Origin: Synechococcus sp. CS-1332 | GTDB lineage: Bacteria; Cyanobacteriota; Cyanobacteriia; PCC-6307; Cyanobiaceae | NCBI RefSeq assembly: GCF_025127995.1 | Contig: NZ_JAHLYP010000039.1 | Coordinates: 1 to 64,000 of the forward strand | DNA length: 64,000 nt | Direction of reading: 5' to 3' | Shown here: positions 8,467-29,313 of the stretch, in pieces | Position numbering within the stretch: the stretch's first letter is position 1 | Layout: each line of letters opens with the position of its first letter | Notes under the pieces: generated by a model | The model's input: only the letters and a program-made list of their open reading frames with translations | The model's database searches: none | What the model was told of the DNA's origin: nothing | Position numbers and translations under genes: made by a program

Positions 8467-8515
8467 CAACGCCCCCTGATGGATTCGAACCATCGACCGG
8501 CTGCTTAGAAGGCAG
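8467..8515 (-). repeat. Left attachment repeat of the integrative element (tRNA-Arg 3' part)
   Basis: Forty-nine bp identical to 29265-29313, in direct orientation, offset 20,798 bp. It covers the 3' portion of tRNA-Arg(TCT), from the anticodon arm through the T arm and acceptor 3' strand, plus three flanking bases. It then diverges, so no full tRNA can be formed here. This is the expected footprint of site-specific integration into a tRNA gene. Confidence 0.93.
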
Positions 8516-9300: not shown

Positions 9301-10530
9301 TTATGAATATTTGGCTTGATCAGTGAGCAACCTGTGCACATGCTCAACCTGTTCCAAGGAAAGGCGGAAATATTCTGACTGAGGGATACGAACTGCTTTA
9401 AACTCTGAATGAAGCACCCTTTCGATTTCACGGTAGTTAGCACATCGCGCGACATTGAGAACCTCATCTGGTCTTAATTGGCTCATCCGACTGAGTAGAT
9501 TTTGAGTTACTCCAATCTTAAACAAATCTCCATTTCTGACAAGATAAACAAATCCATGAGCGCCGGTATGGGGGTGATCATTTGGTGGACCGCTTGACTC
9601 TTCGAGCATCCTAAGTGCTTCAAGGAGATTGGAAACATATTCCTCCCTAACTAATCTGTTTTGAAAGTAACTGCGTTGCCACTGATCCCAGCGTTCATGA
9701 TCTTCAGGGTGCATATACTTCTGTCGCAGCGAGCGATTACGGGTTGAACAAACCTCATACTCCCTGACAAAAAAGTCCAGATACTGCGTCCTTAGCCTTG
9801 CAGGAAGGTCTTGGGATTGACCACTATTCCAAGCCTTCTTAATCTCTGGGAAAGAGTCTGGCGACTCTCCGTGATATCCCATTTCTTGCAGCCCTAGTTC
9901 GAGCCATTCCCTAAGGGAGGGTTTTGTCTTTTTATTGGCCAACAAAAGCTCATTATTGGCATCTTCAACTTTTCCTCTAACTGACTTTCGCCAAAAATCA
10001 AGGGCCCACACTTGTTCGCCAAAACCAATGCCATCTAGCTCAAATGTATTCCAGTAAAGAGACTGGAGCAAAAAATCAAGCGCTGCGAAATGCTCTTTGA
10101 ATGCAGTGAGCCTCTCATCTGCTCTATCTGATAAATTATCATCCCAGGGACCGACTTCTCCTTCGTGACTATTCTTCTGCTCTTCTGACAGGTACTTCAA
10201 ATAAGTACAATTCATAAACTCACTGTCTAATGAAGCGTCAATGAAGTCTTGCTCCAAAGACATCGCTATAGGCCTAGTCATGAACTCAGCAAGGCTGAGC
10301 TGGAGCAATATGTTGAGTTCTATTCTTCGTTCGCTTGGCATCCAGTCATTCCTCAGTTCATTGAGCCCTGATTTGATTCCTTGAAATTCTATGGCAATCC
10401 CCGATATTTCTTCTACACTTGGGACAAACAATGAAGCCTTTCCGCCAGCCCTAAGCCAGTCAGGAGGGTTCTCGACTATGGCCAGATACCTCTTTGTCAG
10501 TACAGCTGGGAGTGCACTCATGTCTTTCAT
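9301..10530 (-). CDS. Protein with C-terminal GIY-YIG (T5orf172-like) nuclease domain
   Basis: A 409-residue protein. The last 85 residues read GFVYLVRNGDLFKIGVTQNL, then SRMSQLRPDEVLNVARCANY, REIERVLHSEFKAVRIPQSE and YFRLSLEQVEHVHRLL. That is the T5orf172/MUG113 branch of GIY-YIG: a FVYLV/KIGVT core, the basic residue after it, the conserved acidic E in REIERVLH and the EYFRL strand. Such domains cut or bind DNA. The first 320 residues are helical and acidic, with no motif I recognise, and may be a sensor or targeting region. Lower GC than the chromosome supports transfer. It converges with the unknown protein at 8647-9267, leaving 33 bp between stops. The start could also be the ATG at 10521. 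Confidence 0.75.
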   Translation of the reverse strand: MKDMSALPAVLTKRYLAIVENPPDWLRAGGKASLFVPSVEEISGIAIEFQGIKSGLNELRNDWMPSERRIELNILLQLSLAEFMTRPIAMSLEQDFIDASLDSEFMNCTYLKYLSEEQKNSHEGEVGPWDDNLSDRADERLTAFKEHFAALDFLLQSLYWNTFELDGIGFGEQVWALDFWRKSVRGKVEDANNELLLANKKTKPSLREWLELGLQEMGYHGESPDSFPEIKKAWNSGQSQDLPARLRTQYLDFFVREYEVCSTRNRSLRQKYMHPEDHERWDQWQRSYFQNRLVREEYVSNLLEALRMLEESSGPPNDHPHTGAHGFVYLVRNGDLFKIGVTQNLLSRMSQLRPDEVLNVARCANYREIERVLHSEFKAVRIPQSEYFRLSLEQVEHVHRLLTDQAKYS

Positions 10531-10752
10531 GAAGTCCGACTAACCAGAAGTTATTTGGATTGTACCTGACCCTCAAGCATGGGTCTCTTTCGGCCATGAG
10601 ATATTGGCTTCTGCATCAAGGGCCACGCTGGCATCATCCGGTCAAGGTGTGGCTGACCATTGGAACCTATTGATAGGATGAGTCAGCTTGTAGCGAACAT
10701 CGGCCCTTCTGAACCCAGCCGCCAGCTGCACTAAGCGATCGACCACCAGGGC

Positions 10753-11313
10753 CTAGATCGCCTCCGATCTGCTCAGGTTCTGGACGTTCGCCGCAGCCCG
10801 ACACCTCGGCTCGTCAGCAGCAGGCCGGCGATACTCCGGGTGTTGTGGATTCCAAGGCTCCCCACAGTGCCCACAGCGCCAGGGGTCTTCGCCTTCGTTT
10901 TCGAGCCAGTCGGCCCACCACTCCATGCTGGTGGGGTCATGGACTGGGAAATCACGGGTAATCACAGTTTCGACCGCGCATTGAACGGCCAGCAGCTGAG
11001 CAGGCTCCAGCGGCGGCCAGCCCTGAGCAGCCAGCTCACGATTAACGATTGGCGTCATGGGGGCCCACAACGTGGCCACGATGTCAACAGGCTTGGGTTC
11101 AGGGCGTGAGGAGCTGTTAATTCGAAGCCGAGTGCAGGCAGCCACACGGTCGGCCAGTGGGGGCAAACCTGCTGGGGCCAGTTCCAGGAGGCGCTTCCCT
11201 GTTGGGCTGGATCGCAGGTAGTCCCTGAGGCTTCCATCTGTGATCAAACGGTAAAGCTGGCTCCTGTTGCGGCCGATACGCAAAGCTGCTTCTGAAATTG
11301 AATGTGCTGTCAT
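10753..11313 (-). CDS. Helix-turn-helix protein with a zinc knuckle
   Basis: A 186-residue protein. The N-terminus ISEAALRIGRNRSQLYRLIT resembles a MerR/excisionase-type helix-turn-helix that would read DNA. The central part is Pro/Leu-rich. Near residue 145 the sequence WRCGHCGEPWNP contains a C-x2-C pair typical of a small zinc knuckle, although the second pair is not clear. I infer a DNA-binding regulator or accessory factor of the element. It lies upstream on the same strand of the short ribbon-helix-helix, ParB-like and recombinase genes' end of the element, but the gaps are too long to assert one operon. Confidence 0.6.
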   Translation of the reverse strand: MTAHSISEAALRIGRNRSQLYRLITDGSLRDYLRSSPTGKRLLELAPAGLPPLADRVAACTRLRINSSSRPEPKPVDIVATLWAPMTPIVNRELAAQGWPPLEPAQLLAVQCAVETVITRDFPVHDPTSMEWWADWLENEGEDPWRCGHCGEPWNPQHPEYRRPAADEPRCRAAANVQNLSRSEAI

Positions 11314-11476
11314 TTGCAGGTAACTCTTAGGTTGTTAATGGAACACGGGGTAGGGGTTGGCATGGCTTTTCTGAGTTGTTTGTATCCTCATGTCTCATAC
11401 TTCTGGTGAGCTAAATAAACAATGAGTGCGGATAGAATCAATCCCCTCTATGCAGCGCTCAAAGGGACCCGCACTC

Positions 11477-11683
11477 TCACGCCAGCGGAGCACGACTGCC
11501 TAACCGCTCTAGGCCCTGGGCCAGCAGGGCACGGGCCAGGGCAGCGCGGGGGCAGCGCATTCGATCCGCCCACTCCTGCAGCTCAGTCGCCATCGGTGCC
11601 GGCAGCTTCAGCGGGACCGAAACCATCGGCTCACCAGGCCGGCGCATGTCTGGCAATACGAAAGGATCCAAAGAGGCCACCAA
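11477..11683 (-). CDS. Small ribbon-helix-helix-like DNA-binding protein
   Basis: About 68 residues from TTG 11683, preceded by AGGG, or 56 from the ATG at 11647. The core VSVPLKLPAPMATELQEWAD, then RMRCPRAALARALLAQGLER, has one strand and two helices in the order of an RHH (Arc/CopG) repressor. Proteins of this kind often control recombinase or partition genes. It follows the ParB-like gene on the same strand with a 46-bp gap. Confidence 0.5.
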   Translation of the reverse strand: MVASLDPFVLPDMRRPGEPMVSVPLKLPAPMATELQEWADRMRCPRAALARALLAQGLERLGSRAPLA

Positions 11684-11729
11684 AGAGCACCCTTCAGGCT
11701 AGGTATCTCGAATGGGCCAGCTCCAGCCA

Positions 11730-12752
11730 TCAACCGATTAGCGCGGCGATCGACTCCCTCAGCAGCTCCAGGTTCTCGTTCACGATCACGTTCGCGGGCC
11801 GCTTCGGGGTGATCTCACCAGCCAGCAGCCCCACCAGATCGGCCAAGGGGCCAGGGTGATTCACCAACTCTCCGAAGTAGGCGGCGCTGGTTTGCACCTG
11901 GGCCCTTGCCTGCCGGCTTCCTTCGGTGTCGATCACATTCCCTGCCGCGGCCAGCACGCTTGCCCCCTTTGGGAACGCTGCAGCAGAGAGGTCCCTGATC
12001 TCGGAGCGCAACCGGGCACGAATGGCGGCGCGAATCTCCAGCATCGGCTCCAGGTCGCTGCTCTCCAGTAGGTCCTCACAACCAGGCAGGCAGTTCTCGG
12101 TGAAGGGGCGAAGGTGTGCAAGGCGGGCGATCTCGGCGGCTTCCCTGGCCTTGGCGGCGGTCCAGTCGTTGCGGAGGGCCAGCTGGGCCAGCTGCCGTTG
12201 GATCGTGGCCGGGGCCTGGCTGCTGCCGATGGCGGCCGCCACATCCAGGGGCAGCTTCCCGATCGCCGCGGCCTGGAACAGATCAGGCGGTAGGTGAACC
12301 AGCTCCAGCGCCGTTCGTGTCGTTCGGCCGTCCCTCGGCACCCCGTAGGCGGCCAGCTCCCCAGGGCCCATAGCGGTATCCCTGAATAGCTTGGCGGCGT
12401 CGATTGCGGTGCCACGCTCCTCTGCAATGTTCTGGAGGGCGCCGATGGTGCGGGCCTCGATGGCGGTTGCTGCAGATAGAAACCGCACCGCCACCAGCTC
12501 AACACCACAGCGCAGGGCAAGGGCCAGTCGGTGGTGGCCGTTGACAACGAACGGACCAGGGCTTGGGTCTGACAGATCACGCCAAACAGTCAGAACACCG
12601 GCCAGGTCAGGATTCCAGCGGGCGGCATCTTGCAGGACCGGTGTTGTACCGGCGCGGCTTGTATGGAGCTTGAACTGGAAACGCTGTGCATCGACGCGGA
12701 TCGACGTGGCGGGGATCAATGCCAGTTCCATAAACCACTGAAGCCGCTGCAT
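11730..12752 (-). CDS. ParB/Srx-fold protein
   Basis: About 340 residues. The N-terminal region shows LIPATSIRVDAQRFQFKL, RWNPDLAGVLTVWRDLSD and VNGHHRLALALRCGVELVAV. The NGHHR box matches the ParB/sulfiredoxin-type fold, where G-x-H-R marks the nucleotide pocket. A helical middle section follows, with IAEERGTAIDAAKLFRD and PLDVAAAIGSSQAPATIQRQ, the region where ParB proteins have their helix-turn-helix. ParB-like proteins bind centromere-like sites or act as nucleases. No ParA is adjacent, so partition alone is unlikely. Starts at GTG 12758, ATG 12752 or ATG 12731 are all possible. Confidence 0.7.
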   Translation of the reverse strand: MQRLQWFMELALIPATSIRVDAQRFQFKLHTSRAGTTPVLQDAARWNPDLAGVLTVWRDLSDPSPGPFVVNGHHRLALALRCGVELVAVRFLSAATAIEARTIGALQNIAEERGTAIDAAKLFRDTAMGPGELAAYGVPRDGRTTRTALELVHLPPDLFQAAAIGKLPLDVAAAIGSSQAPATIQRQLAQLALRNDWTAAKAREAAEIARLAHLRPFTENCLPGCEDLLESSDLEPMLEIRAAIRARLRSEIRDLSAAAFPKGASVLAAAGNVIDTEGSRQARAQVQTSAAYFGELVNHPGPLADLVGLLAGEITPKRPANVIVNENLELLRESIAALIG

Positions 12753-12824
12753 CCACACGGAAAGTTAGGCAGGCTCAGGCCAGCCTCTGGGGCTGGTCAG
12801 GCAGGCGGCCAGGTGCTCATCCGG

Positions 12825-13436
12825 TCACCTCAGCAGCAGGCCACGGGCACCCTCGGCCCGTTCCTTGGCGGCATCCTGATCGAGGTACCGCTCCAGGGCG
12901 GCCAGGCTCTGGTGGCCGGTCATGGCGGCCACCTCGCGCAGGCTCAGCCCGGCGGCATGGGCGGCAGTGGCGGCGCTTCGGCGGAAGCTATGGCTGGAGA
13001 CGCCACCGACACCAACGACAGCGGCGAGGCGGGCGATCGCTGCCTGAGCACCTCTGACACTGAGCGGCTGGCCAGCGATGCCGGGAAAGATCCATCCCCG
13101 CTTCGAGGTGGGGCACACTTCGCGCCATGCCTGCAGCAGGCGGCAGGCCACGGGCGGCAAGGTCAGGCCACGCCCGACTCCTGTCTTCGTGATCTGACCA
13201 GGGATTGCCACGTTGTAGCCGTCAACGTCATCCCACGTCAGCAGGGTGACCTCACCCACGCGCATGGCCCCGGCTGTCATCAGGGCGATCAGGGCCGAGT
13301 CACGGGGACCGGCGGCCTCGATCATCGCGGTGATCTCGTCGGCATCCAGCACGGCGGCCCGCTTCACGGCGGTGGACTTCGGCGCCTTGTCCCTGAGGAG
13401 GGCACGTTCGGCGGAACGGCGGGAGGCGGCGGCCAT
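12825..13436 (-). CDS. Short tyrosine recombinase (catalytic domain only)
   Basis: A 203-residue protein covering the catalytic domain of a tyrosine recombinase: first Arg in GAMRVGEVTLLTWDDV, HSFRRSAAT (H-x-x-R), MTGHQSLAALERYLD with His and the nucleophile Tyr near residue 188. The N-terminal core-binding domain found in ordinary integrases is absent, although LDADEITAMIEAAGPRDSAL near the start is the usual beginning of the catalytic part. It is the second recombinase of the element, separate from the tRNA-proximal integrase. AGGAGG lies about 20 bp before the ATG, which is too far, so the start is not certain. A sigma70-like promoter lies directly upstream. Confidence 0.8.
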   Translation of the reverse strand: MAAASRRSAERALLRDKAPKSTAVKRAAVLDADEITAMIEAAGPRDSALIALMTAGAMRVGEVTLLTWDDVDGYNVAIPGQITKTGVGRGLTLPPVACRLLQAWREVCPTSKRGWIFPGIAGQPLSVRGAQAAIARLAAVVGVGGVSSHSFRRSAATAAHAAGLSLREVAAMTGHQSLAALERYLDQDAAKERAEGARGLLLR

Positions 13437-13460
13437 GGGGCGGGTGATCGGGCTCCTCCT

Positions 13461-13489
13461 ATTATGCGTCTTCTAGACAAAAGGCGCAA
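13461..13489 (-). promoter_or_regulatory. Sigma70-like promoter upstream of the short recombinase
   Basis: On the minus strand TTGCGC, a 17-bp spacer and CATAAT are followed at once by AGGAGGAG. Both spacing and position fit a promoter for the recombinase/ParB-like genes. It is predicted by eye. Confidence 0.4.
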
Positions 13490-13576
13490 CTCTGCCCAGA
13501 TCGCCTGCGGTGGTGTGGTCGCGGCGACTGCGGCGGGAGGGCGCGACTCACGGGGCCGTTATTGAGAATCGTCTGG

Positions 13577-13598
13577 GGAGTCTGGCGACGCTGCAGAC
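13577..13598 (+). repeat. Copy 1 of a 22-bp partly palindromic box
   Basis: GGAGTCTGGCGA followed by CGCTGCAGAC. The outer GTCTG...CAGAC is an inverted repeat. It matches the box at 13873-13894 in 20 of 22 positions, in direct orientation. Weaker relatives occur near 13624-13651 and 13821-13839. Confidence 0.6.
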
Positions 13599-13872
13599 AC
13601 TGACAATCGGATCAGCGTCTGGCGGAGTCGGCAGAGTCCGCGGACTGCAGCCGCCAGCAGTTCCAGCCGGTACGGGTCGCCGTGATCCCGCCACGGGTGA
13701 GGGGCGAGGATCCGGGCCTGACCCCAAGGATCCAGGCGGTTTCGGCGGTGCTTAGACCCAGCCCTGACCGGATCGCTCGCTAGGCGGCCTCCAGGCAGGC
13801 CGGGAAGGGGCCAGCCTCGGCGGACTGGGCGACGCTGCCGGTCCTGCCGTCACCGCCGTCAGGGCTGTCTGT

Positions 13873-13894
13873 GGAGTCTGGCGATCCTGCAGAC
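13873..13894 (+). repeat. Copy 2 of the 22-bp partly palindromic box
   Basis: GGAGTCTGGCGA followed by TCCTGCAGAC, differing from copy 1 at two central bases. Paired boxes next to a recombinase and a ParB-like gene could be recombination, centromere-like or operator sites (inference). Confidence 0.6.
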
Positions 13895-14415
13895 CGCCTT
13901 GGAGGTCAGCGATCCGTATTTCGCCCCGGCCGACCCAGGCAGGCGGTCGCAGTCGTGGAGGTCGAGGGCCAGCTCGACGCCGATGGGATCCTGGAAGGAC
14001 AGCATGCCGTAGGCGCCGGGATGGTCAGGGCCGCGGCACACTTCGAACATATCAAGACCAGGCGAACCTGGGGGGCGCTGTCCATGTTCCACCCGCTCCG
14101 CTGGCGCTCCAGGGTGGCCGGCGACAACCTTGCGACCTGGATGCTGCGGCAGGGCCGAGACGAAGGGCGCTGGGCGCGGGGGTACGCCATCGCCTCATAT
14201 AGATCCTGTGGAGGTTATGGACAGATGCAGTGGTCGGCGTCGCCTTCGGTGATCAAGATGTTCACCGGCGCTACGGTCTGACGGTTGGGGCTCCTCGGGT
14301 CGTCGAGGTTGAGGACAACCTCAACCGGGGGCGGTTCAGGTTCTGGATGCTCAGAGCGGGCCTCATGCAATGCAAGGTTGTTCCTGTCCAACCCGAAACA
14401 CGAGCGTTGGCGTCT

Positions 14416-15177
14416 TTAGGGCTCTCCTGAGAAACGTAAGTCTTCTGGAAGACGAAGGGTGAAGCTTCCGTGTTTCAAGTAGTACTCTGCTACCTTAACG
14501 CGCTGTTGCCAGTATTGGATCTTTTGTTTGTCACTAATAGCAATTGCTGCAGCAAGCTCATCCTCAGCGGTAGCCAAAAGATGCTCAATTATTTGCTGAA
14601 CTCTAGCTTGGTATAGCCCACGCGCCTCGTCACTCAATGCAAGGTGCTTGATCCCAAGCTCAAGTCCTGCCATGCCCATTAAGCAGAACATACAAACAGA
14701 ACCCTCTACTAGCTCAATAAGCTCGTTCTCTTCTTCAGGTGTTGGTACAAAAAAGGTTTCTGTATAGCCCCCCCATCGACGCTCTTGAAGCTTTGGCACA
14801 GCCTGCCGCCACCGCTGTCCCACATGAAGAGAAAACTGCTCTGAGATCCAAGCTTCTGCTCTGGTGAGGTTGCCTCGATTTACCACTAGATCTTCAAAAT
14901 GACACGATTCCCATACGAATTCTCCGATCTCAGGATTCATGGCTCGTATGATTCGCGTCTTGAGTTGTGCGATCCCAATCTTGACGAACCCTGGATAGTT
15001 TCTCATCCGTGCTAGATATAGCACGGATTCAGACGTAGCATCTCGCATTTCACCGCGCAGAAAAGCCTCAATGGAATCAAACTTGCTTTCTTGTAGAGGA
15101 TCTCTAAACTTCCACCAGAACTTTTCATCAGGTCCGGTCAGGTCAGTGAGGTAATCGAGGTCGCACTCCGATTCCAC
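14416..15177 (-). CDS. GIY-YIG-like (T5orf172-type) protein
   Basis: A 253-residue protein starting at GTG 15177. Residues about 50-150 contain VLYLARMRNYPGFVKIGIAQ, LKTRIIRAMNPEIGEFVWES, then NLTRAEAWISEQFSLHVG and GGYTETFFVPTPEEENELIE. This has the T5orf172 order: a tyrosine strand, KIGI, a conserved Arg, a Glu-containing helix (RAEAWISEQF) and a final ETFF strand. The C-terminal 100 residues are helical with no known motif. It is likely a DNA nuclease or a nuclease-derived DNA-binding protein. It is distinct in architecture from the other two GIY-YIG-like proteins of this element. Confidence 0.65.
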   Translation of the reverse strand: MESECDLDYLTDLTGPDEKFWWKFRDPLQESKFDSIEAFLRGEMRDATSESVLYLARMRNYPGFVKIGIAQLKTRIIRAMNPEIGEFVWESCHFEDLVVNRGNLTRAEAWISEQFSLHVGQRWRQAVPKLQERRWGGYTETFFVPTPEEENELIELVEGSVCMFCLMGMAGLELGIKHLALSDEARGLYQARVQQIIEHLLATAEDELAAAIAISDKQKIQYWQQRVKVAEYYLKHGSFTLRLPEDLRFSGEP

Positions 15178-15209
15178 TGGTTTCTAGCAATGTGGTCTAC
15201 ATTCTGCAC

Positions 15210-15398
15210 TCAAGAGCCCGGCTCCAGCAGGTGGTCGCCGAAAGCCGTCGCCCCGGGGAGCAGCTCCATCAGCTGGTGCAGGCCCAGCAGCTCGGCGTAT
15301 GCGTTGCTGGCAGATCCGTCTATCCTGGCCACTGCCGTCACGAACGACCCCAGAACCTGGGCCGGGGTTTGCTCGTGGCGCTTCGCCATTCGGAGCAA
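15210..15398 (-). CDS. Small unknown protein
   Basis: Sixty-two residues from the ATG at 15398: MLRMAKRHEQTPAQVLGSFV, then ARIDGSASNAYAELLGLHQL and a short acidic tail. The composition is protein-like and helical. It sits 18 bp after the stop of another small frame on the same strand. No family is recognised. Confidence 0.35.
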   Translation of the reverse strand: MLRMAKRHEQTPAQVLGSFVTAVARIDGSASNAYAELLGLHQLMELLPGATAFGDHLLEPGS

Positions 15399-15416
15399 CG
15401 TTCGGACGGCGGCCCC

Positions 15417-15620
15417 CTAAATCAGGGCGGTGAGGCGCTCCAGCCGGCGGACTTGCATCTCCTGATTCCGCAGGAACCTTTGGAGGCTTCGCGATGGCTG
15501 GCGGCGCGGCTCTCGCTGATCTCCGCGGTAACGGCGGCTCAGGCGGACGGTCGGGTGTGGGCGGCCCAGCCACCATCCGGGACCAGAGACGGCCGATAAG
15601 CCGGCGGCGGCAGTGCTCAT
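15417..15620 (-). CDS. Small basic protein, possibly frameshifted
   Basis: Sixty-seven residues; the last 40 (RRYRGDQREPRRQPSRSLQR, then FLRNQEMQVRRLERLTALI) look like a basic helical protein. The N-terminal part reads poorly. A different frame starting at 15666 (MPAPLALDLLLHALTDEHCR, then RRLIGRLWSRMV) reads better and could be the true N-terminus of the same gene if a frameshift lies near 15530. Function unknown. Confidence 0.3.
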   Translation of the reverse strand: MSTAAAGLSAVSGPGWWLGRPHPTVRLSRRYRGDQREPRRQPSRSLQRFLRNQEMQVRRLERLTALI

Positions 15621-15734
15621 CGGTGAGGGCGTGCAGCAGCAGATCCAAGGCGAGGGGGGCAGGCATCGAGGGGCAGAAGCTCCCCTCAGGGTTCCCGGGG
15701 GCGGTCAGAGATCTGTTGGTGTTCAGGTGCCAAG

Positions 15735-15998
15735 TCAGCCCGATCGGACGCCGGCACCCCCCTTCTGCTCAATCTTGCTGTCAATTACCAGCTTTGCCCT
15801 CTCCACGCATTCATCGAGTGTTTTAAACGGAAGGCCAGGCAGTATTCCTGTGGGTTCTTGCTCGGGCTCAGTAATCTCATACATATACCCATAACCAGGA
15901 ACAGGTGTAACTGAGATATGCCAATCCTTGTAGAGGATTCCGTCCCCAAGAATGTCGGGCAATGGTGATGGGTCGTCCATGGTTCTTGACCGTTTCAT
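15735..15998 (-). CDS. Small unknown protein
   Basis: Eighty-seven residues, or 81 from the ATG at 15980. The core ILYKDWHISVTPVPGYGYMY, EITEPEQEPTGILPGLPFKT and LDECVERAKLVIDSKIEQ has alternating strands and one closing helix, with codon use like a real gene. The shape resembles small single-domain alpha/beta proteins found on phages and islands, but I cannot name a family. It lies in the low-GC cargo part of the element. Confidence 0.5.
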   Translation of the reverse strand: MKRSRTMDDPSPLPDILGDGILYKDWHISVTPVPGYGYMYEITEPEQEPTGILPGLPFKTLDECVERAKLVIDSKIEQKGGAGVRSG

Positions 15999-16598
15999 TA
16001 GTGCCAGTCGTAGCTCACACGCGCCTCCACGACAAGGGGGAGAATGTCCTTCACGTAGGCGCTAAGGCGATGGCTCGCCGCTCAGGCGGGTCGCCCGCCA
16101 GTATCCCGTGCGAATTCGCCCCAGCAGGCCCTGAAATGCCGCCGCCGCCAGGCCCACTGCTCGGCCTGCCATCGCTGTTCATCCGCCCTCATCCGCTCCA
16201 CCCAGGCGGCAACCTCCGGACCCATCGCGGCCAGGTCCGCCTCCAGCTACAACACCAGCTGGGGTGGTTCCAGGCTCGATCTGCCGGACATCCCACCGAC
16301 TCCGCTGAGCGGAACCAGTGACCTGCTCGATCAGGTCAGGGAGGCATGGTCGCTGGTAGTTGGGCCGGGATGAGTGGAAAACCGTCTTCCCACCCGTCAG
16401 CTAGGGCGCCCGCACGCTGTCTTGGTTGGAGCGGTCCCTCCGTGGAATCACCACTGGACTGAACTGGCGCGGCAGCTGGGGCGGCTGGTGAATAAAGTTC
16501 AGAGAAAATTTAACATTGGAAGCTTTCAGTTTCAGCCATTCAGCCAGTCTGGCTCTACCTTGGACTCATAGCACTGTCGTGAACAAGACTAGGAAGTT
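15999..16598. other. No gene supported
   Basis: About 600 bp before the zinc-ribbon gene. Open frames are short and rich in Pro/Arg. The last 100 bp turn AT-rich (AAAGTTCAGAGAAAATTTAAC) and probably contain the promoter of the downstream gene. The ribosome binding site AGGAAG is at 16591-16596. Confidence 0.35.
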
Positions 16599-18719
16599 GT
16601 GGCCAAACTAGTTCCAGGAGTCAACGACCTTGCAACGCTGTTCCCTGAGATTGCTGCACAGGCTGACGGGTGGGATCCAACAACGGTCACCGCTAAGAGT
16701 GGAAAGCGGCTTGGCTGGCGTTGTGTACGTGGTCATAAATGGGAGACTGTGGTATCGCGTAGGACTCCACCATCTAGTTGCGGATGCCCCTATTGCTCTG
16801 GCAATCGAGTACTGGAAGGCTTTAACGATCTTGCCACGTTGTACCCAGATGTAGCAAAGGAAGCAGACGGTTGGGACCCGAGGATGGTCACCGTTGGCAG
16901 CGTGAAGAAGCTGACATGGAGCTGTGAAAAGGGACACAAATGGGTTGCGACGGTATTAAATAGGACACCACCGTCGAGCACAGGTTGTCCTGTCTGTCGT
17001 GGACGAAAGCTACTAGAGGGTTACAACGATCTTGCTGCACATTTCCCTAAAGTTGCTAAACAGGCTTATGGCTGGGATCCGAGCAAGGTCAATGCCAGCA
17101 GTGTGCGGAAACTCCCTTGGCTTTGCAGTAGAGGGCATATATGGGAAGCGGTTGTTTCAAACAGGACACCACCTACGTCCACTGGCTGTCCAGTCTGTTC
17201 AGGCAGGAGAGTTCTTGCAGGCTTCAACGACTTGGCAAGCATCTATCCAGAGATAGCAGCAGAGGCTGATGGTTGGGACCCATGTACTGTGACTGTCAAG
17301 TCCGGCAAGAGGCAGTGGTGGCGATGTGTTAGGGGTCACTCATGGCATTCTCCAGTTTCTGAAAGGACCCCACCCAGTAGTAGCGGTTGTCCCATTTGTT
17401 CGGGGAGACAAGTTCTTCCAGGTTTCAACGATTTGGGAACCCTCTACCCTATGATTGCGGCACAGGCAGATGACTGGAATCCATCGACAGTTACGCCTGG
17501 TAGCCAGCGCAAAGTGGCTTGGCGATGTGCAGTTGGTCATACTTGGCGTGCGACAGTTTCTGACAGAACACCACCGGCAAATACTGGCTGCCCTGTCTGC
17601 AAAGGCAGGCAAGTGCAGGCAGGCTTCAATGACCTAGCAACCCGTTACCCTAACATTGCGGCAGAAGCCTATGGCTGGGATCCGACGACAGTTACCTCTA
17701 AATCCCACTTGAAGCTTCGTTGGCGTTGTGTGCGTGGGCATGAGTGGGAAGCAACTGTATCAACTAGAACTCCTCCAATAAGTGCTGGTTGCCCATATTG
17801 CTCTGGCAATAAAGTTCTTGCAGGCTTTAATGATCTTGCGACAGTCTATCCAGATATTGCTGCACAGGCATATGGGTGGGACCCTAAAACAGTTTCTGCA
17901 GGCAGCTGCAAAAAGCTGACCTGGCGGTGTAGAGAGGGGCATTTCTGGGTTGCACAAGTTGGGAATAGAACTCCACCCCAAGGGCTTGGTTGTCCAATCT
18001 GTTCGGGGCATCAAGTGCTTCCTGGCTTTAATGACCTGGCCACGCTGTTCCCTGAGATAGCAGCGCAAGCTGACGGGTGGGATCCATCAACGGTCACCCG
18101 TGGCAGCAAGCAAAAGCATCTTTGGCGATGCTGGCTTGGACACACTTATCGTGCCAGCATCGGCAGTAGGACCCCGCCTAGAAACTCAGGGTGTCCATTT
18201 TGCGCAGGCAAACAAGTACTTGCTGGATTTAATGATTTAGCAACCTTGTTTCCTGAGGTAGCTAATCAAGCAGATAAATGGGACCCCGCTTCAGTGGCTG
18301 GAAAATCAAGCAAGATGATGCCTTGGCGTTGCAAGAAAGGCCACACATGGAATGCGACTGTAGTTAACCGCACTGGGAATAGTAGTGGCTGCCCAGAGTG
18401 TGCCGAGTTTGGTTTCAAGCGAGAACTGCCAGCTTGGTTCTACTTGCTTGAACGGCCAGGTGAACAACAGCTAGGCATCACCAACCGAAGGGAAGGTCGC
18501 GTCTATGAGCATTACCTAAACGGTTGGGTGCTGATAGAGATGATTGGCCCCTTCCCTGGTGAAATTGTCCTAGCGACTGAGATTAGATTCAAGAAGTGGC
18601 TTCGGAAGGAAGTCGGCCTCGTGCCAGGCACCCATGAAAACTGGTTTACTGCTCGGATGGAAGTGCAGTCGCTGGCAGAATTGAAGGAAAGAAGCGGCAT
18701 CGAGACCGACCTTTTCTAA
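16599..18719 (+). CDS. Nine-fold zinc-ribbon repeat protein with C-terminal GIY-YIG-like domain
   Basis: A 706-residue protein starting at GTG after AGGAAG. Residues about 8-605 are nine tandem units of about 67 residues. Each opens with a GFNDLATLYPxIAxQADGWD-like strand/helix, then TVTxxSxKxLxWRC, GHxWxxxVxxRTPP and GCPxCSG. Each unit supplies C, H, C and C as zinc ligands, the pattern of the DUF4379-type treble-clef ribbon. Residues about 606-706 (PAWFYLLERPGEQQLGITNR, then a GPFPGEIVLATEIRFKKWL segment and ENWFTARMEVQSLAEL) look like a T5orf172/GIY-YIG nuclease. Related ribbon arrays are known joined to endonuclease domains in phage, giant-virus and island proteins; the ribbons probably recognise DNA or an end structure. 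The long array length is unusual. Confidence 0.8.
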   Translation: MAKLVPGVNDLATLFPEIAAQADGWDPTTVTAKSGKRLGWRCVRGHKWETVVSRRTPPSSCGCPYCSGNRVLEGFNDLATLYPDVAKEADGWDPRMVTVGSVKKLTWSCEKGHKWVATVLNRTPPSSTGCPVCRGRKLLEGYNDLAAHFPKVAKQAYGWDPSKVNASSVRKLPWLCSRGHIWEAVVSNRTPPTSTGCPVCSGRRVLAGFNDLASIYPEIAAEADGWDPCTVTVKSGKRQWWRCVRGHSWHSPVSERTPPSSSGCPICSGRQVLPGFNDLGTLYPMIAAQADDWNPSTVTPGSQRKVAWRCAVGHTWRATVSDRTPPANTGCPVCKGRQVQAGFNDLATRYPNIAAEAYGWDPTTVTSKSHLKLRWRCVRGHEWEATVSTRTPPISAGCPYCSGNKVLAGFNDLATVYPDIAAQAYGWDPKTVSAGSCKKLTWRCREGHFWVAQVGNRTPPQGLGCPICSGHQVLPGFNDLATLFPEIAAQADGWDPSTVTRGSKQKHLWRCWLGHTYRASIGSRTPPRNSGCPFCAGKQVLAGFNDLATLFPEVANQADKWDPASVAGKSSKMMPWRCKKGHTWNATVVNRTGNSSGCPECAEFGFKRELPAWFYLLERPGEQQLGITNRREGRVYEHYLNGWVLIEMIGPFPGEIVLATEIRFKKWLRKEVGLVPGTHENWFTARMEVQSLAELKERSGIETDLF

Positions 18720-22511: not shown

Positions 22512-23933
22512 TCAGATAAGAAGTGTGTACTTTCCAAGTTGTACGTCGGCGACGGTCGCCTCGATACGAGGCTTGCGGTAGTAGCGCAGGATTGGGCCCC
22601 AACGCCGGACCTCCCCAGACTCCATGATGTCCTCAACTGTGTATAAGCGCAACGTGATTCCATACTCCTCAATGTACAGAGTGGCACCCCCTTCTGTAAC
22701 AGCGGAGAAGACCACCTCAGCGACAACCCTTCGATTCACTCTGGTTTCGCTTGTGAACGTCTTCTTGGCTTGTCCTGTTCTAACCAACTCGAAAATGTCA
22801 GAATGTTGACTGCTGCTGCCAAGCAGCACATCGCTGACCGAGCCAGTGAGATTGGACACCGATGCAGCGCCTTTCCAAAGCGCGGCCGTCTCGTTGTCTT
22901 GAAGAAGATGCTCGGTGAGTTCAGTCTGCACCGTGGCATTGGTCATGCCTGTAGCCTTTGCCACTATTATTTTCCCTGAGTAAAAGCCATCGCGCCAATC
23001 TAGCTCCGTGACTGGATCGTAGGTGTTTTGGATAATAAGTTCACGAGAGCCATTCGGGTAGTGCGCCTCCTCTTTGATCTCCACGCTGTACAAACTCGGT
23101 CCACCTTGAGGCGAGGGCCGAATCGTGACCGCAGTGAAAGGCGATGACATTGAATCAAACCAAGTTCCAATCCACTCTCGCCTGGCAGGCACCTGAACGG
23201 CGTGATACCGCCTTTTTCGAAGCTTCTCGGAGGTGCCAAATTGGGGCATTGATTCCGAAGTGACGGTGATATCCATCTGGTACCGTGGCTGGTGGCAACC
23301 TTCAGGTACCTCATCAATCGGTTCGGACTCTAGTGTTAGCGAGCCTACTGCGGTCGATTGGCCAAAGTTATCTCGGTTCCAAGTTAAGGTCTTTCTGAAA
23401 ACTATCCCAGTACACTTCGGCCAGTCTGCAAAGAAAGAAGATATGATCTTTTTGATGGCTTCGCCGCCAAGCCCCTTCGCCGCAGCTGCTACATAGGCAG
23501 CGAAATTCTTGGTTTGTTCCCCACCTAGGGCTAATCCCGCTGCGCCACCGGCAGCCGCAACCCCAAGCGCTGTGACAAGTTTGGTAACTGCATATGGGTC
23601 GTCTACACCACGGATATTCCAAAGCGTTATTGAAACATCCCAATTGGCGAGCGAATCATCTGGCAAGTCCACAACCAGTTCCCAATCAATATTTCGTCCG
23701 TAGCCCCAGGCGTTGTCGTCACGAATGAGCGCAAAGCTATCGCCGGGACCAAAGTGGGGATCAATCCGCGGGCCGTTGGTAATACCTAGAGGCGAAGAGA
23801 GCCTCATGTCTGGAGTCGGAACTTGACCCGCTGGAGCGATCCAGAAAGCAACGTTCAACGTGTCGTGGTAATCGCCCGCATTTCGAGACTGCAAGCATCG
23901 TATGGTATCAAGTTTTATCCGGTATGAAGCCAT
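22512..23933 (-). CDS. Unknown 473-residue protein with internal Gly/Ala hydrophobic segment
   Basis: The N-terminal 110 residues are beta-rich: MASYRIKLDTIRCLQSRNAG, DTLNVAFWIAPAG, then FALIRDDNAWGYGRNIDWEL and WDVSITLWNIRGVDDPYAV. About residues 115-160 follow, with LVTALGVAAAGGAAGLALGG and FAAYVAAAAKGLGGEAIKKI, a hydrophobic or amphipathic helical pair. A long beta-rich half then runs to the end (CTGIVFRKTLTWNRDN, RRYHAVQVPARREWIGTWFD, ATLYIEEYGITLRLYT). Beta domains around a Gly/Ala helical hairpin are seen in pore-forming or effector-type proteins, but no known toxin family is recognised. There is no signal peptide. It is the nearest gene to the iteron cluster. Confidence 0.6.
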   Translation of the reverse strand: MASYRIKLDTIRCLQSRNAGDYHDTLNVAFWIAPAGQVPTPDMRLSSPLGITNGPRIDPHFGPGDSFALIRDDNAWGYGRNIDWELVVDLPDDSLANWDVSITLWNIRGVDDPYAVTKLVTALGVAAAGGAAGLALGGEQTKNFAAYVAAAAKGLGGEAIKKIISSFFADWPKCTGIVFRKTLTWNRDNFGQSTAVGSLTLESEPIDEVPEGCHQPRYQMDITVTSESMPQFGTSEKLRKRRYHAVQVPARREWIGTWFDSMSSPFTAVTIRPSPQGGPSLYSVEIKEEAHYPNGSRELIIQNTYDPVTELDWRDGFYSGKIIVAKATGMTNATVQTELTEHLLQDNETAALWKGAASVSNLTGSVSDVLLGSSSQHSDIFELVRTGQAKKTFTSETRVNRRVVAEVVFSAVTEGGATLYIEEYGITLRLYTVEDIMESGEVRRWGPILRYYRKPRIEATVADVQLGKYTLLI

Positions 23934-24466: not shown

Positions 24467-24470
24467 CCTT

Positions 24471-26714
24471 TCAACCCTCATCAACCAGATAAAGGGTCGG
24501 CCGTGAGTCGCGGATCCTCTTGAGGAATCCTTGGATCACCAGCGATTCGCACTGCTTCCGAACCCCAACCATCTGCGACTGTTCAGGGTTGGCGCCGTAG
24601 ATCACCTCAGCGATCTCCCGCACGGCCGAGCCTTTCGGTGATGCCAGCCCGCCAATGGTTTCCAGCACCTGGGTCTGCTGCTCGGAGTTGGGGACTTCGG
24701 TCTGCTTCGCTTCGGTCTTCCGCTGCTTCTGCCATGCCGCGTGCTCGGCAAGGCGGATCCACTGGCCAGTACCACCGTCCAGGCTGATCACAAGGTCACA
24801 GCCTCGGCTGCTGCGGCCTTCCATGGCCAGACGCCGCTCAGGGATGTCCTTCATGGGCAGGCTGCCGACCTTGCCCGCGTTCAGGTAGTGCAACGTGATG
24901 ATGCTGTTGGCCGCGCCGGCGATGGCGCTGTGGCCGCTCAGGGCTTCGGTGCCGGTGCCGTCGGTGCTCTTGTTGCAGTGATGGATCAGTACCAGGGATC
25001 CGCCGGCATCCATGACGCCTTGTTTGATGTCGTAGAGCAGGGCGCCGATCTCGGGGTCGTTCTCCCCGAAAGGACAGGATCGGGTGATGGACCGCAACGA
25101 ATCAACGATCACCACCGCGCCAGGGTTGGCCGTGATGGCGCTGTGGAGCTGGTCTAGATCGTGTTCAGTGACGCGAAACCGGCGGACCCACAGCAGACGC
25201 GGGTGGTTCCAGATCGCCAGCTTCTCCAGCTGCTCGGCGGTGTCGGCGTCGCCCTGGTCATCGCTGACCAGGATCACCGGGGCCAATGTCGGTGGTCTGC
25301 CGAAACTGATGAAGTCTTCCTGCAGCAGCAGTGCTCGGGCAGCCGCAACAGCGAGGCGAGATTTTCCGACCTTGGGACGGCCGCCGATGATCGTCAGGTC
25401 GCCGGCAGGGATCAGGCCAGGGATCAGCCAGCGGATTACCGGTTTCGGCATGGCATCACGATCAGCAGCTGTGAGCAGCGAGAAAGTGTTGCCCACGCGT
25501 CGGTCGAGGGCCTGAAGCACCTCGGCGCCGATCTCCTTATCGCGGATGGATCCCTTGAGTTTCAGTGCATCAATTGCATGGCGAAGTCGCACGATGCGCC
25601 GAAGGGTGTTTCGTTCGGTGCTGACCAGTGCATTGATGCAGTGGCGGAAGCACTCCAGCCGGCGGGAAAGGCTGAGGGTGGTTGGTTTTCGTTTTTTCGG
25701 CTTCGGTTTAGCTACCAGCGGCGGCTGCTGGACCCGTGGCCGCTTCGAGCTGATCGAAACCACGTTGCTGGTCTCCCTGCGGTGGAACGCCAGCCGGTTC
25801 AGCAGCTTGTGCTCTGGTGTCGAGGGCCTCGGGTGCTGATCGGCTGCCCCCTCGAAGCGGGCCCAGGCGGCACGGGTGTCGAAGGCGGCGCCGCCGATGG
25901 TGTCAGGGCAGTGGGAGAGGTAGCAGGAGAAGGCATCACGGGCGGTTTCTTCTGCTGCTGCACCCTGGGCCTGCAGCCAGGCTTCCACGGCGATCAGCTC
26001 AAGGGAGAGGCGCAGCCCGTCCTCATTGCAGGATCCCTCCCGGCTGCCGGTGACGATCAGGTCCTTGGCCGGTTTGCTGATGAACTCCCGGAACGGCACG
26101 GGGGTGCCTGTAGCCGGCTGAGGTGCTTTGTGGGCCTGCAGCAGCGGCGACGGTTGCGGGGGCGCTGCCTTCAGTGGCATCTGGTCCAGCAGCCAGGCGG
26201 GTGCCTCGGCTAGTTCCACCTCCCACGGAGCGCAGCCCTCGACCCAGCGGTAGCCGTCTGTTTCGGGGTGGGCGCCGAGGATCACGGACTGCTGGCCAGC
26301 CCACCGAAATTCCAGGGGGCCGAGCGTTGCGATGCGGTGATCAAGGGCAGCCCAGCGGTCGGGCGGCACCTTGAACGCAATCTGTTTTCGATCAAGCTTG
26401 GTGCTGGTCCAGGCGATCGAAGGTGGAAGATCGGAACTAGGCCGCCCGTAGGTCTTCTGGAAAGTCGGTTCACCATCTGGCCCATCGAAGTCGGTGGCCA
26501 TTGTGCTGGTGATCGGGCCCAGCCGCAGGCCAACCGCAGGCGCCAGGTTGAGGGCCTCAGCTGAGAAGGTGGGCCAGTCTGTCCACCCTTTGCTGCTTTT
26601 CGTTACTGGGTTGAAGGGACGTTTGTTGCGATCAACTGGTATCAGCCCCGGCAGCCACAGGAGAGGAAGCTGGGGCAACGGCCAGCCTGGTTGGGAGGAT
26701 GCAGCAGTCATCAC
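24471..26714 (-). CDS. Bifunctional primase-polymerase / RepA-like helicase
   Basis: A 747-residue replication protein. Residues about 20-180 are a prim-pol domain: LIPVDRNKRPFNP, VGLRLGPITSTMATDFDGPD with DFD (75-77) as metal ligands, then EFRWAGQQSVILGAHPETDG and APAWLL. A basic linker (PKPKKRKPTT near 337-346) follows. Residues about 430-660 form a RecA-type ATPase: Walker A IIGGRPKVGKSRLA (443-456), Walker B AVVIVDSLRS (533-542), and VLIHHCNKSTDGTGTEALSG with SGHSAIAGAANSIITL. The C-terminus looks like a winged helix. It would prime and unwind the element after excision. The start is GTG 26714 (after GAGGAG), overlapping the upstream stop by 4 bp. Confidence 0.88.
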   Translation of the reverse strand: MMTAASSQPGWPLPQLPLLWLPGLIPVDRNKRPFNPVTKSSKGWTDWPTFSAEALNLAPAVGLRLGPITSTMATDFDGPDGEPTFQKTYGRPSSDLPPSIAWTSTKLDRKQIAFKVPPDRWAALDHRIATLGPLEFRWAGQQSVILGAHPETDGYRWVEGCAPWEVELAEAPAWLLDQMPLKAAPPQPSPLLQAHKAPQPATGTPVPFREFISKPAKDLIVTGSREGSCNEDGLRLSLELIAVEAWLQAQGAAAEETARDAFSCYLSHCPDTIGGAAFDTRAAWARFEGAADQHPRPSTPEHKLLNRLAFHRRETSNVVSISSKRPRVQQPPLVAKPKPKKRKPTTLSLSRRLECFRHCINALVSTERNTLRRIVRLRHAIDALKLKGSIRDKEIGAEVLQALDRRVGNTFSLLTAADRDAMPKPVIRWLIPGLIPAGDLTIIGGRPKVGKSRLAVAAARALLLQEDFISFGRPPTLAPVILVSDDQGDADTAEQLEKLAIWNHPRLLWVRRFRVTEHDLDQLHSAITANPGAVVIVDSLRSITRSCPFGENDPEIGALLYDIKQGVMDAGGSLVLIHHCNKSTDGTGTEALSGHSAIAGAANSIITLHYLNAGKVGSLPMKDIPERRLAMEGRSSRGCDLVISLDGGTGQWIRLAEHAAWQKQRKTEAKQTEVPNSEQQTQVLETIGGLASPKGSAVREIAEVIYGANPEQSQMVGVRKQCESLVIQGFLKRIRDSRPTLYLVDEG

Positions 26715-27549: not shown

Positions 27550-27776
27550 GAGCGACCTGCCTCCGCCTTGGGGCGAGGAATCTGTTTGCTGCGTTTGGCC
27601 AGGGTGGTTTCAACAGCGGGAAGATCCCATCGCAAATTGGGCTTGCGCAGGCCCAGGCCATGCGCCGTGAAATGTACGCCAGGGCGCAGGATGTCAGCGG
27701 CGCGGAGTCGCGTCAGCGTGTTTCTGGTCACACGCAGCGCGGCCTGCACCTCACCAGTGGTGAAGGAAAAAGTCAT
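27546..27776 (-). CDS. Excisionase-like helix-turn-helix protein
   Basis: Seventy-six residues beginning MTFSFTTGEVQAALRVTRNT, then LTRLRAADILRPGVHFTA. This is the MerR/AlpA-type winged-helix layout (EVxxxLxVTRxTLxRLRxxGxLxPG) of recombination directionality factors. A basic tail ends KQIPRPKAEAGRS. It lies 148 bp downstream of the integrase stop on the same strand and begins the coupled replication operon. A role in excision and in controlling that operon is therefore likely. Confidence 0.7.
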   Translation of the reverse strand: MTFSFTTGEVQAALRVTRNTLTRLRAADILRPGVHFTAHGLGLRKPNLRWDLPAVETTLAKRSKQIPRPKAEAGRS

Positions 27777-29264: not shown

Positions 29265-29313
29265 CAACGCCCCCTGATGGATTCGAACCATCGACCGGCT
29301 GCTTAGAAGGCAG
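29265..29313 (-). repeat. Right attachment repeat within tRNA-Arg(TCT)
   Basis: Identical over 49 bp to 8467-8515. It comprises three flanking bases and the tRNA from its 3' end through the anticodon arm. The intact tRNA is kept at this end because the element brings a replacement 3' portion. Confidence 0.93.

What the first reader, a model, noticed from the sequence alone, without database searches (positions are those of the whole stretch)
9301..18719. Three differently built GIY-YIG/T5orf172-like proteins in one element
A 409-residue protein with a C-terminal domain, a 253-residue protein with an N-terminal/central domain and a 706-residue zinc-ribbon protein with a C-terminal domain all lie within 9.5 kb. 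They share the Y-L/KIG core but little else. Such a set could be a DNA-targeting, homing or anti-phage system, or weapons against competing elements. The combination is not one I recognise.
Basis: partly seen in the sequence, partly recalled or inferred. Interest (0 to 1): 0.75.

Follow-up and report, generated by a model that had tools for sequence, protein, structure and literature searches.

The report
Three DNA-cutter genes in mobile element
A cyanobacterium carries a 20.8-kb mobile DNA element inserted in a tRNA gene, and among its cargo are three differently built genes that probably encode DNA-cutting enzymes with separate DNA-recognition parts, most likely weapons against viruses or rival elements; each part has known relatives, but the set of three was not found in any other element examined.

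Summary
The three genes are real and at the stated coordinates. They are cargo of a 20,798-bp element inserted in a tRNA-Arg(TCT) gene, bounded by a perfect 49-bp direct repeat; six related genomes keep the empty site. Its backbone (integrase, small HTH-like protein, Prim-Pol/AAA helicase) recurs in related tRNA-Arg/Val elements and resembles phage satellites or tycheposons.
P1 has a clear T5orf172/MUG113 GIY-YIG domain. P3 has nine DUF4379 zinc modules plus a C-terminal domain that Pfam misses but profile, motif and (modest) structural evidence place in GIY-YIG. P2 belongs to a small family without a model in four libraries, probably GIY-YIG.
They are not one conserved system: no other element examined has all three. 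One Prochlorococcus 4.8-kb tRNA-Asn element has a P3-type gene beside a degenerate P1-type gene; two P2-family genes lie between tRNA-derived repeats.
Best reading: separately acquired, homing-endonuclease-like modular nucleases used as defence or competition cargo. In a complete sister element, the slot between primase and second integrase holds a type IIG restriction enzyme. Homing, regulation and modification-dependent restriction remain possible. New variant of a known kind.

The parts
8467..8515 (+). left attachment-site copy (49 bp), identical to the 3' part of tRNA-Arg(TCT)
   Evidence: perfect direct repeat D2; its core has only two matches in the window at up to 3 mismatches, 0.01 expected; empty sites in relatives
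9301..10530 (-). P1, 409 aa: residues 1-320 unassigned, C-terminal T5orf172/MUG113 GIY-YIG domain (326-400) with Y329, KIG 338-340, R348, E370, H374
   Evidence: Pfam E 1.3e-13; residues; relatives match the domain only; GC3 0.43
11730..12758 (-). 342-aa protein matching residues 1021-1317 of PHROG 21; ParB-like by my own reading of the sequence (recalled, no Pfam hit)
   Evidence: GC3 0.75
12825..13436 (-). Int2, 203-aa tyrosine-recombinase catalytic domain; shared with the complete sister element L099
   Evidence: PF00589 E 2.6e-24; L099 match E 2e-92
14416..15177 (-). P2, 253 aa: probable GIY-YIG domain about residues 50-143, helical tail about 147-236 in the model; GTG start
   Evidence: no library hit; family members L003, L121, L122, L123; hhalign against P1 domain 0 of 200 shuffles, probability 39%; model pLDDT 61
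15735..15998 (-). 87-aa ORF whose homologue lies directly beside the P3 homologue in G088; possible P3 partner
   Evidence: E 1e-15 at L105:10195-10632; found in 3 of 197 genomes, own included; in G009 on a short contig without P3
16599..18719 (+). P3, 706 aa: nine DUF4379 treble-clef repeats at a constant spacing of 67 aa (201 bp), then a GIY-YIG domain of about 100 aa
   Evidence: repeats D1; model pLDDT 90; Slx1 GIY-YIG match, modest; phage CapR/T5orf172 proteins
22512..23933 (-). 473-aa protein of unknown function; a close copy lies on contig C34 of the same genome beside a partial Prim-Pol copy
   Evidence: E 1e-268 in L136; Prim-Pol fragment 87% identical with one stop
24471..26714 (-). 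Prim-Pol plus AAA_25 helicase (replication module)
   Evidence: Pfam 5.4e-11 and 4.3e-21
27546..27776 (-). 76-aa HTH_17-like protein (excisionase/AlpA type is my inference), backbone gene
   Evidence: HTH_17 E 0.0058, 17.3 bits against a cut-off of 27; match in 13 of 16 integrase loci
27925..29121 (-). Int1, integrase beside the tRNA gene
   Evidence: PHROG 1 integrase E 6.8e-8; PF00589 only 0.034, below cut-off; close relatives beside tRNA-Arg/Val
29265..29313 (+). right attachment-site copy, overlapping tRNA-Arg(TCT) 29267-29342(-)

Best explanation
Shown: the region 8467-29313 is a tRNA-Arg-integrated mobile element with a satellite-like backbone (integrase, small HTH-like protein, Prim-Pol/AAA helicase). 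P1, P2 and P3 are AT-richer cargo, each with a GIY-YIG-type domain (P2 probable) and a different accessory part. Inferred: each is a DNA endonuclease. Its accessory part (nine zinc modules in P3, the 320-residue N-terminus in P1, the flanks of P2 or a partner protein) selects a DNA target absent from, or hidden in, the host and the element, and the GIY-YIG domain nicks or cuts it. The element benefits because incoming phages or rival elements are cut: homing-endonuclease-like nucleases used as defence or competition cargo. A crude motif scan found no methyltransferase signature in the element, so protection of self would have to come from target choice or modification dependence, not from a cognate methylase.
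For: Element: perfect 49-bp repeat ending in the tRNA; empty site contiguous in 6 of 11 loci examined. Backbone shared: of 16 integrase-related loci, 11 have a called tRNA-Arg(TCT) or tRNA-Val(TAC), 13 the HTH gene and 8 Prim-Pol, several loci being cut by contig ends. Cargo slot: the complete 8.8-kb sister element L099 has Int1-HTH-Prim-Pol-o200-[cargo]-Int2 between 50-bp tRNA-Val repeats and its cargo ORF is a type IIG restriction enzyme-methyltransferase (PADLOC E 2.3e-301); in the window P2 and P3 lie in that same interval. Other defence hits in related loci: HmaA in L089, SoFic in L095. Composition: GC3 0.43-0.46 for P1-P3 against 0.75-0.80 for Int1, Prim-Pol, Int2 and the ParB-like gene. 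Active-site R and E present in all three by motif. P3 C-terminus under constraint against L112, pN 0.20, pS 0.71. Relatives inside small tRNA-bounded elements: L129 and L114 by rule, L126 by eye; controls 0 of 57 positions in 19 stretches. No relatives of P1, of P2 or of the P3 C-terminus in IMG/VR scans, nor of P1 and P2 in phage records.
Against: No activity was measured. P2's fold is not settled: low-confidence model and no informative match. P3's Slx1 match is of middling Z (5.1), and P3 has Q in place of the usual Y/K of YIG. The P1-type gene in L114 has lost several motif residues (my reading) and Pfam does not see the domain, so some family members may have no nuclease function. The P3 zinc array does have phage relatives: 25 phage records, all under 60% identity, none covering 80%, and phage RcXuper joins such an array to a GIY-YIG-like end. 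IMG/VR scans use short exact peptide patterns and can miss relatives. Other cargo of unknown function is as AT-rich as P1-P3 (GC3 0.40-0.55). Defence hits: 109 ORFs from 10 of 17 element loci were scanned, with 25 of 85 matched families shown; of 10 ORFs scanned singly 3 matched and 7 did not. The far end of the HmaA element was not located, and SoFic lies in an adjoining tandem tRNA-Val segment. P1 lies outside the slot shared with L099. Only 3 of 18 relative genes meet the tRNA-bounded rule.
Confidence: 0.45

Rival explanations
1. They are free-standing homing endonucleases: selfish genes that cut a cognate site lacking them and are copied in, living in the element as hitch-hikers.
For: The domain plan (modular zinc or HTH parts plus GIY-YIG/T5orf172) is that of the homing-endonuclease genes described in PMC10448857 (passages); the P3 model finds phage proteins named homing endonuclease, CapR-homology and T5orf172; sporadic distribution: P3 C-terminus in 4 of 197 and P2 in 2 of 197 relatives, own genome included.
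Against: No viral relatives of P1, P2 or the P3 C-terminus in the scans made; some relatives sit in tRNA-bounded elements; the element inserts as a unit. Allelic empty sites for the single genes were not tested.
Confidence: 0.25
2. They act as DNA-binding regulators, or in the element's own life cycle (control of helper-phage genes, processing of its replication or attachment sites), with the GIY-YIG domain serving binding or nicking of one site.
For: PLE CapR is a regulator derived from T5orf172-type DNA-binding parts, and I-TevI is also a repressor (PMC10448857 passages); the element has a Prim-Pol replication module.
Against: The 16 related loci do not carry the genes, so they are not needed for that life cycle; R and E of the active site are kept in all three by motif.
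Confidence: 0.15
3. At least one of them (P3 being the likeliest) is a modification-dependent (type IV-like) restriction enzyme that reads modified phage bases.
For: A single-gene GIY-YIG defence enzyme of this type, CMoRE, is described in PMC12923530 (passages); no methyltransferase motif found in ORFs of the element by a crude scan; nine similar zinc modules could sense a modification (inference).
Against: No link to the CMoRE sensing domain was tested; cyanophage base modifications were not examined.
Confidence: 0.1

Closest known systems
T5orf172/GIY-YIG homing endonucleases with CapR, DUF723 or related zinc arrays in phages (PMC10448857, passages; PHROG 681)
   Same: [quoted passage not shown] PHROG 681 matches the P3 array (6e-47) and weakly the P1 domain (0.032)
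   Different: Carried by an integrated cyanobacterial element; the P3 C-terminus and the P2 domain are subfamilies without a Pfam match; P1's N-terminus has no recognised DNA-binding domain
Group II intron homing endonucleases in phages with CapR/DUF4379/DUF723-like modules (PMC12350094, one passage)
   Same: Three to five zinc-type modules of about 60 aa followed by a nuclease domain
   Different: Their nuclease domain is EDxHD/Vsr-like, not GIY-YIG, and they lie in introns
Odn of phage ICP1 and the PLE satellite conflict (PMC8263062 and PMC10448857, passages)
   Same: GIY-YIG (T5orf172) domain joined to a swappable DNA-binding part and used in phage-satellite conflict
   Different: There the phage holds the nuclease against the satellite; here the satellite-like element holds three. 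No RepA_N match was reported for P1-P3 in the Pfam scan
Tycheposons of Prochlorococcus (seen only through PMC10872708 passages; the original paper recalled)
   Same: tRNA-bounded, tyrosine-recombinase-bearing cargo elements in picocyanobacteria; tandem tRNA fragments in relatives (L126, L095)
   Different: Their tRNA genes and recombinases were not compared with these; membership not established
Phage-inducible chromosomal islands (recalled core: integrase, AlpA-like regulator, primase-helicase)
   Same: Integrase, small HTH-like protein and Prim-Pol/AAA helicase in that order
   Different: No packaging or capsid-interference gene recognised among the ORFs scanned; phage induction not testable
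CMoRE/PD-T4-3 type IV restriction enzyme (PMC12923530, passages)
   Same: Single-gene defence built on a GIY-YIG domain
   Different: N-terminal nuclease with a C-terminal sensor; no sequence link tested
Plant EFFECTOR OF TRANSCRIPTION proteins (PMC6585611, search listing only)
   Same: Variable number of zinc-binding repeats plus a GIY-YIG domain
   Different: Plant family; homology not tested

Membership tests
T5orf172/MUG113 (P1) | Pfam score over the curated cut-off | tested here: met
   51.8 bits against cut-offs 20 and 22.3
GIY-YIG superfamily (P3 C-terminus) | profile similarity to a GIY-YIG family and conserved Y, R, E | tested here: met
   hhalign against the P1-domain family 0 of 200 shuffles, probability 86% (72% without Rhodococcus); Y615, R634, E661, conserved in relatives
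GIY-YIG superfamily (P3 C-terminus) | GIY-YIG fold | tested here: inconclusive
   model pLDDT 90 with hairpin-helix-strand-helix order; Slx1 Z 5.1, rmsd 3.4, 88 residues, a middling Z from a second look at Foldseek's hits; plain Foldseek against PDB found only the zinc part among top rows; viral models 84 matches at E 0.001 spanning zinc module and domain
GIY-YIG superfamily (P2) | profile similarity and fold | tested here: inconclusive
   0 of 200 shuffles but probability 39%; motif residues present; model pLDDT 61, no informative match
DUF4379 array (P3) | repeated treble-clef modules over cut-off | tested here: met
   336 bits against 24.5, 9 stretches; nine repeats, spacing 67 aa
tRNA-integrated mobile element | attachment repeats, integrase, empty site in relatives | tested here: met
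Phage satellite (PICI-like) | integrase, AlpA-like regulator, primase-helicase | tested here: inconclusive
   integrase and Prim-Pol/AAA met; the HTH gene is below the Pfam cut-off
Phage satellite (PICI-like) | induction and packaging by a helper phage | not testable with these tools
   -
Tycheposon | same recombinase and tRNA set as described for Prochlorococcus | not tested
   original paper not held; only PMC10872708 passages seen
Homing endonuclease gene | cleavage of the allelic site lacking the gene and copying into it | not testable with these tools
   -
Known anti-phage system in PADLOC | match over most of the protein | tested here: not met
   P1 hits PDC-S57 only in the GIY-YIG part (1.2e-8); P3 hits one REase_II profile over 30 residues; P2 none

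The most novel reading that the evidence does not exclude
A cyanobacterial phage-satellite-like element carries a battery of three separately addressed GIY-YIG nucleases, one of them from an undescribed nuclease-domain family (the P2 family) whose relatives carry different front parts (a zinc-module array, an HTH array, a PspC domain). The P3 array of nine variable zinc modules reads a long DNA target. The element uses them to cut helper phages or rival elements: the mirror image of the ICP1-PLE conflict, where the phage holds such a nuclease.
Probability: 0.25. Interest if true: 0.75.

Novelty: new variant of a known kind. Interest (0 to 1): 0.5.

Why it matters
If right, homing-endonuclease-type nucleases have been taken up as cargo weapons by tRNA-integrated elements of picocyanobacteria, extending the ICP1-PLE type of conflict to cyanobacteria. 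The P2 family would be an additional GIY-YIG subfamily. Arrays of similar DUF4379 modules with strongly variable positions (5 to 9 units in the four array homologues whose start is on the contig and the window's own) raise a testable question: do they read DNA module by module? The genes are single and short enough to test by cloning.

Tried and rejected
One three-gene system: rejected for lack of conservation. 0 of 16 fetched integrase-sharing loci carry any of the three families and 0 of 8 IMG/VR integrase loci. The 16 loci are the strongest matches, which had matches in 137 of 197 genomes; strong fragments in G011:C151, G075 and G099:C123 were not fetched.

Element carried by known virus contigs: Prim-Pol gave no IMG/VR relative. 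Int1 gave 8 at 56-61% identity, with no tRNA called on them; whether these are packaged elements was not resolved.

Direct relatives elsewhere: P1 and P2 none in plasmids. P3: 69 plasmid records and 25 phage records. In the four proteins I translated, the zinc array is followed by GIY-YIG (Rhodococcus), GIY-YIG-like (phage RcXuper, Pfam GIY-YIG E 0.01, below cut-off), and, by my reading of the sequence, Vsr-like (Streptomyces) and SNF2 helicase (Crinalium) ends.

Structure look-up: for the P3 model, plain Foldseek against PDB found only the zinc part with confidence. For P2, Foldseek and the second look returned mainly helical matches and no GIY-YIG chain in the rows shown; this is not evidence against. 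PDB sequence search: P1 none, P3 one weak DUF4379 chain (E 0.29).

CapR Pfam model in 101 family genomes: 0 matches. P3 C-terminus in 273 genomes of the phylum: only the own genome. Of the five genomes matched by the P2 profile, one is the own genome; I set aside L124 (G445; the ORF reads to me as pyrF) and L125 (second place in G447, two stops).

tRNA-repeat count: strict rule 3 of 18 gene positions, in 2 of 17 loci (L129, L114). L126 was added by eye because both repeat copies are tRNA-Pro fragments away from the intact gene. Several loci are cut by contig ends.

The 87-aa ORF as an obligate P3 partner: not supported, since G009 has it on a 4.7-kb contig with no P3 in view.

Literature: searches 'DUF4379' with and without 'GIY-YIG', 'zinc-ribbon, GIY-YIG, defense', 'GIY-YIG, genomic island, anti-phage, satellite' and 'phage satellite, cyanobacteria, Synechococcus, integrase, tRNA': the listings showed no title or abstract reporting such a set; only open-licence PMC papers are held, and I did not read those listed. 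A search for satellite-encoded nicking nucleases was not followed up.

Full report
What is there. The window is the first 64 kb of a 77-kb contig of a 2.97-Mb genome. It is picocyanobacterial by inference: genomes that the tool puts in the same family have contigs of the same lengths as named Prochlorococcus and Synechococcus contigs. Three ORFs stand at the stated coordinates. P1 (409 aa) ends in a T5orf172/MUG113 domain; P3 (706 aa) is nine DUF4379 modules plus a C-terminus that Pfam does not name; P2 (253 aa) has no match in Pfam, PADLOC, PHROGs or NCBIfam.

The element. ARAGORN finds one tRNA, Arg(TCT), at 29267-29342(-). A perfect 49-bp repeat of its 3' part lies at 8467-8515. A search of 42 genomes of the genus with the right flank matched 40; I examined the loci returned for 11 genomes other than the own one. 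In six (G003, G007, G017, G022, and with shorter left flank G005 and G041) left and right flanks are contiguous around a single copy of the 49 bp. The insert is therefore 20,798 bp. In the other five the left flank is absent or matches only in part. G019 has a tRNA fragment 20.5 kb from its tRNA-Arg, so an element of similar size may sit there.

Backbone. From the tRNA inward: Int1 (27925-29121), a 76-aa HTH-like protein, a 200-aa protein, Prim-Pol/AAA helicase (24471-26714), and further in Int2 (12825-13436). Of 16 loci fetched for Int1, 11 have a called tRNA-Arg(TCT) or tRNA-Val(TAC) (6 and 5), 13 the HTH gene and 8 Prim-Pol; several are cut by contig ends. L099 is a complete 8.8-kb sister element between identical 50-bp tRNA-Val repeats with Int1, HTH, Prim-Pol, the 200-aa protein and Int2. 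Its one large cargo ORF, between the 200-aa protein and Int2, is a type IIG restriction enzyme. P2 and P3 lie in the matching interval of the window's element; P1 lies outside it, between Int2 and the left repeat. PADLOC over 109 ORFs of 10 of the 17 element loci matched 85 families, 25 shown; scanned singly, 3 of 10 ORFs matched: the type IIG enzyme, HmaA (L089, far end of the element not located) and SoFic (L095, in an adjoining tandem tRNA-Val segment). These three account for most of the 85, so a few further hits went unseen.

Cargo composition. GC at third codon positions is 0.43, 0.46 and 0.46 for P1, P2 and P3, against 0.75-0.80 for Int1, Int2, Prim-Pol and the ParB-like gene and 0.67-0.84 for three host genes. 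Other cargo of unknown function is AT-rich too (0.40-0.55). Later acquisition than the backbone, from an AT-richer source, is the simplest reading; it does not single out the three genes.

P3. The nine repeats stand at a constant 67 aa. Over 38 repeats of 7 proteins the three cysteines, two W, two P, two A and one R are invariant and the presumed zinc histidine nearly so; G, N and D at the repeat start are invariant partly by construction, as repeats were picked by that motif; other positions vary strongly. Within the window's array pN is below pS in 36 of 36 repeat pairs. Homologues with the same C-terminus, from a scan of genome contigs: 8 loci, one Synechococcus and seven Prochlorococcus. 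The C-terminus keeps Y, R, H and E in these rows. The model of last repeat plus C-terminus has pLDDT 90 and the GIY-YIG order of elements. A second look at Foldseek's PDB matches gives Slx1 chains at Z 5.1 and below, which is middling. Against viral models 84 matches reach E 0.001, and of the 50 shown several are named CapR-homology, T5orf172, homing endonuclease or GIY-YIG. The window-to-L112 comparison gives pN 0.20 and pS 0.71 (pS is near saturation, and saturated against L113 and L114). A DUF4379 array joined to the same kind of C-terminus occurs in a Rhodococcus plasmid, and one joined to a GIY-YIG-like end in a Rhodobacter phage; by my reading of the sequences, arrays in Streptomyces and Crinalium plasmids carry other effectors. 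In phage records P3 matches 25, by the array and at under 60% identity.

P2. A first relative, L003, came from 197 genomes (E 4.7e-4). A two-row profile over 386 genomes of the phylum then gave L121, L122 and L123, plus L124 (set aside as chance) and a second, broken place in G447 (L125). L003 has DUF4379 and CapR modules over cut-off and L121 an HTH array; L123 has a sub-threshold DUF723 match and zinc-ribbon-like stretches by eye; L122 has a PspC domain. Invariant columns of the five-row alignment include Y54, K66, G68, R106, A109, E113 and W135 of P2; an R just after the KIG (R75 in P2) is present in each row by eye but does not align in one column. The profile match to the P1 domain beats all of 200 shuffles, but hhalign probability is 39% and the structure model is poor. 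I hold GIY-YIG membership of P2 as probable, not shown.

P1. Of 197 relatives 29 have a match, own genome included. Apart from the self match none of the places listed reaches below query residue 303, so the N-terminus is an orphan in that set. Most of these relatives are open frames of about 115-250 aa.

Where the relatives live. By a strict rule (gene between two copies of a repeat of 20 bp or more, one overlapping a tRNA 3' end), 3 of 18 relative genes are inside such a structure, in 2 of 17 loci: L129 (P2 family, tRNA-Val, with a KilA-N gene and a remnant of an Int1-type integrase, E 5e-9) and L114 (P3-type and P1-type genes side by side, tRNA-Asn). The L114 P1-type gene is found by my P1-domain profile (5.7e-12) but not by Pfam, and its motif is degenerate. 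L126 (P2 family) lies between two tRNA-Pro fragments 2.2 kb apart, near an integrase-like ORF (PF00589 E 0.001, below cut-off); I counted it by eye. Controls: 0 of 57 positions in 19 stretches taken at round coordinates from seven of the same genomes. The numbers are small and several test loci are truncated.

Reading. Three modular nucleases of homing-endonuclease build, separately acquired by one satellite-like element. The slot argument (a restriction enzyme in the matching place of the sister element) and the lack of relatives of P1, P2 and the P3 C-terminus in five IMG/VR scans favour defence or competition over homing. The published ICP1-PLE case shows that such domains are used in phage-satellite conflict (PMC8263062, PMC10448857, passages). 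What the proteins cut is unknown. Confidence: element 0.95; P1 GIY-YIG 0.97, P3 0.9, P2 0.75; DNA cleavage by at least one 0.75; defence or competition role 0.45-0.5.

Novelty. The domains and the P3 plan are known; the P2 family lacks a match in the four protein-family libraries searched (for P2 itself); the set of three in one tRNA-integrated element was not found elsewhere in the loci examined.

Noticed in passing
window 15735-15998(-) and L105:10195-10632(+): An 87-aa ORF near P3 has a homologue directly downstream of the P3 homologue in G088; found in 3 of 197 genomes (own included), once without P3 in view. Possible partner or immunity gene.
   Followed up: partly
L121 / L126:10035-11879: The HTH array of this P2-family protein matches NCBIfam Cbp1 (CRISPR repeat-binding protein) at 1.7e-28, 99 bits against a cut-off of 140; an HTH array fused to a nuclease-like domain.
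   Followed up: no
G000 contig C34 (L136:6097-8376): Second copy of the 473-aa ORF (E 1e-268) beside a partial Prim-Pol 87% identical to the window's: remnant of a sister element; a tmRNA gene lies about 6.5 kb away on the same stretch.
   Followed up: partly
window 11730-12758(-): 342-aa protein matches residues 1021-1317 of a 1362-residue PHROG 'portal protein' profile; ParB-like by eye.
   Followed up: no
L107, L127, L128: Prochlorococcus-family stretches around the relatives hold several direct repeats of about 20-90 bp that are not tRNA fragments; their position relative to genes was not checked.
   Followed up: no
window 24290-24468: Imperfect 61-bp inverted repeat (75%) just downstream of the Prim-Pol gene; candidate origin or terminator.
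   Followed up: no
L104:8457-17998: A 9.5-kb tRNA-Pro-bounded stretch in G007 with a full-length Prim-Pol relative (57%) and the HTH gene but no Int1 match: same replication module, presumably with another integrase.
   Followed up: no
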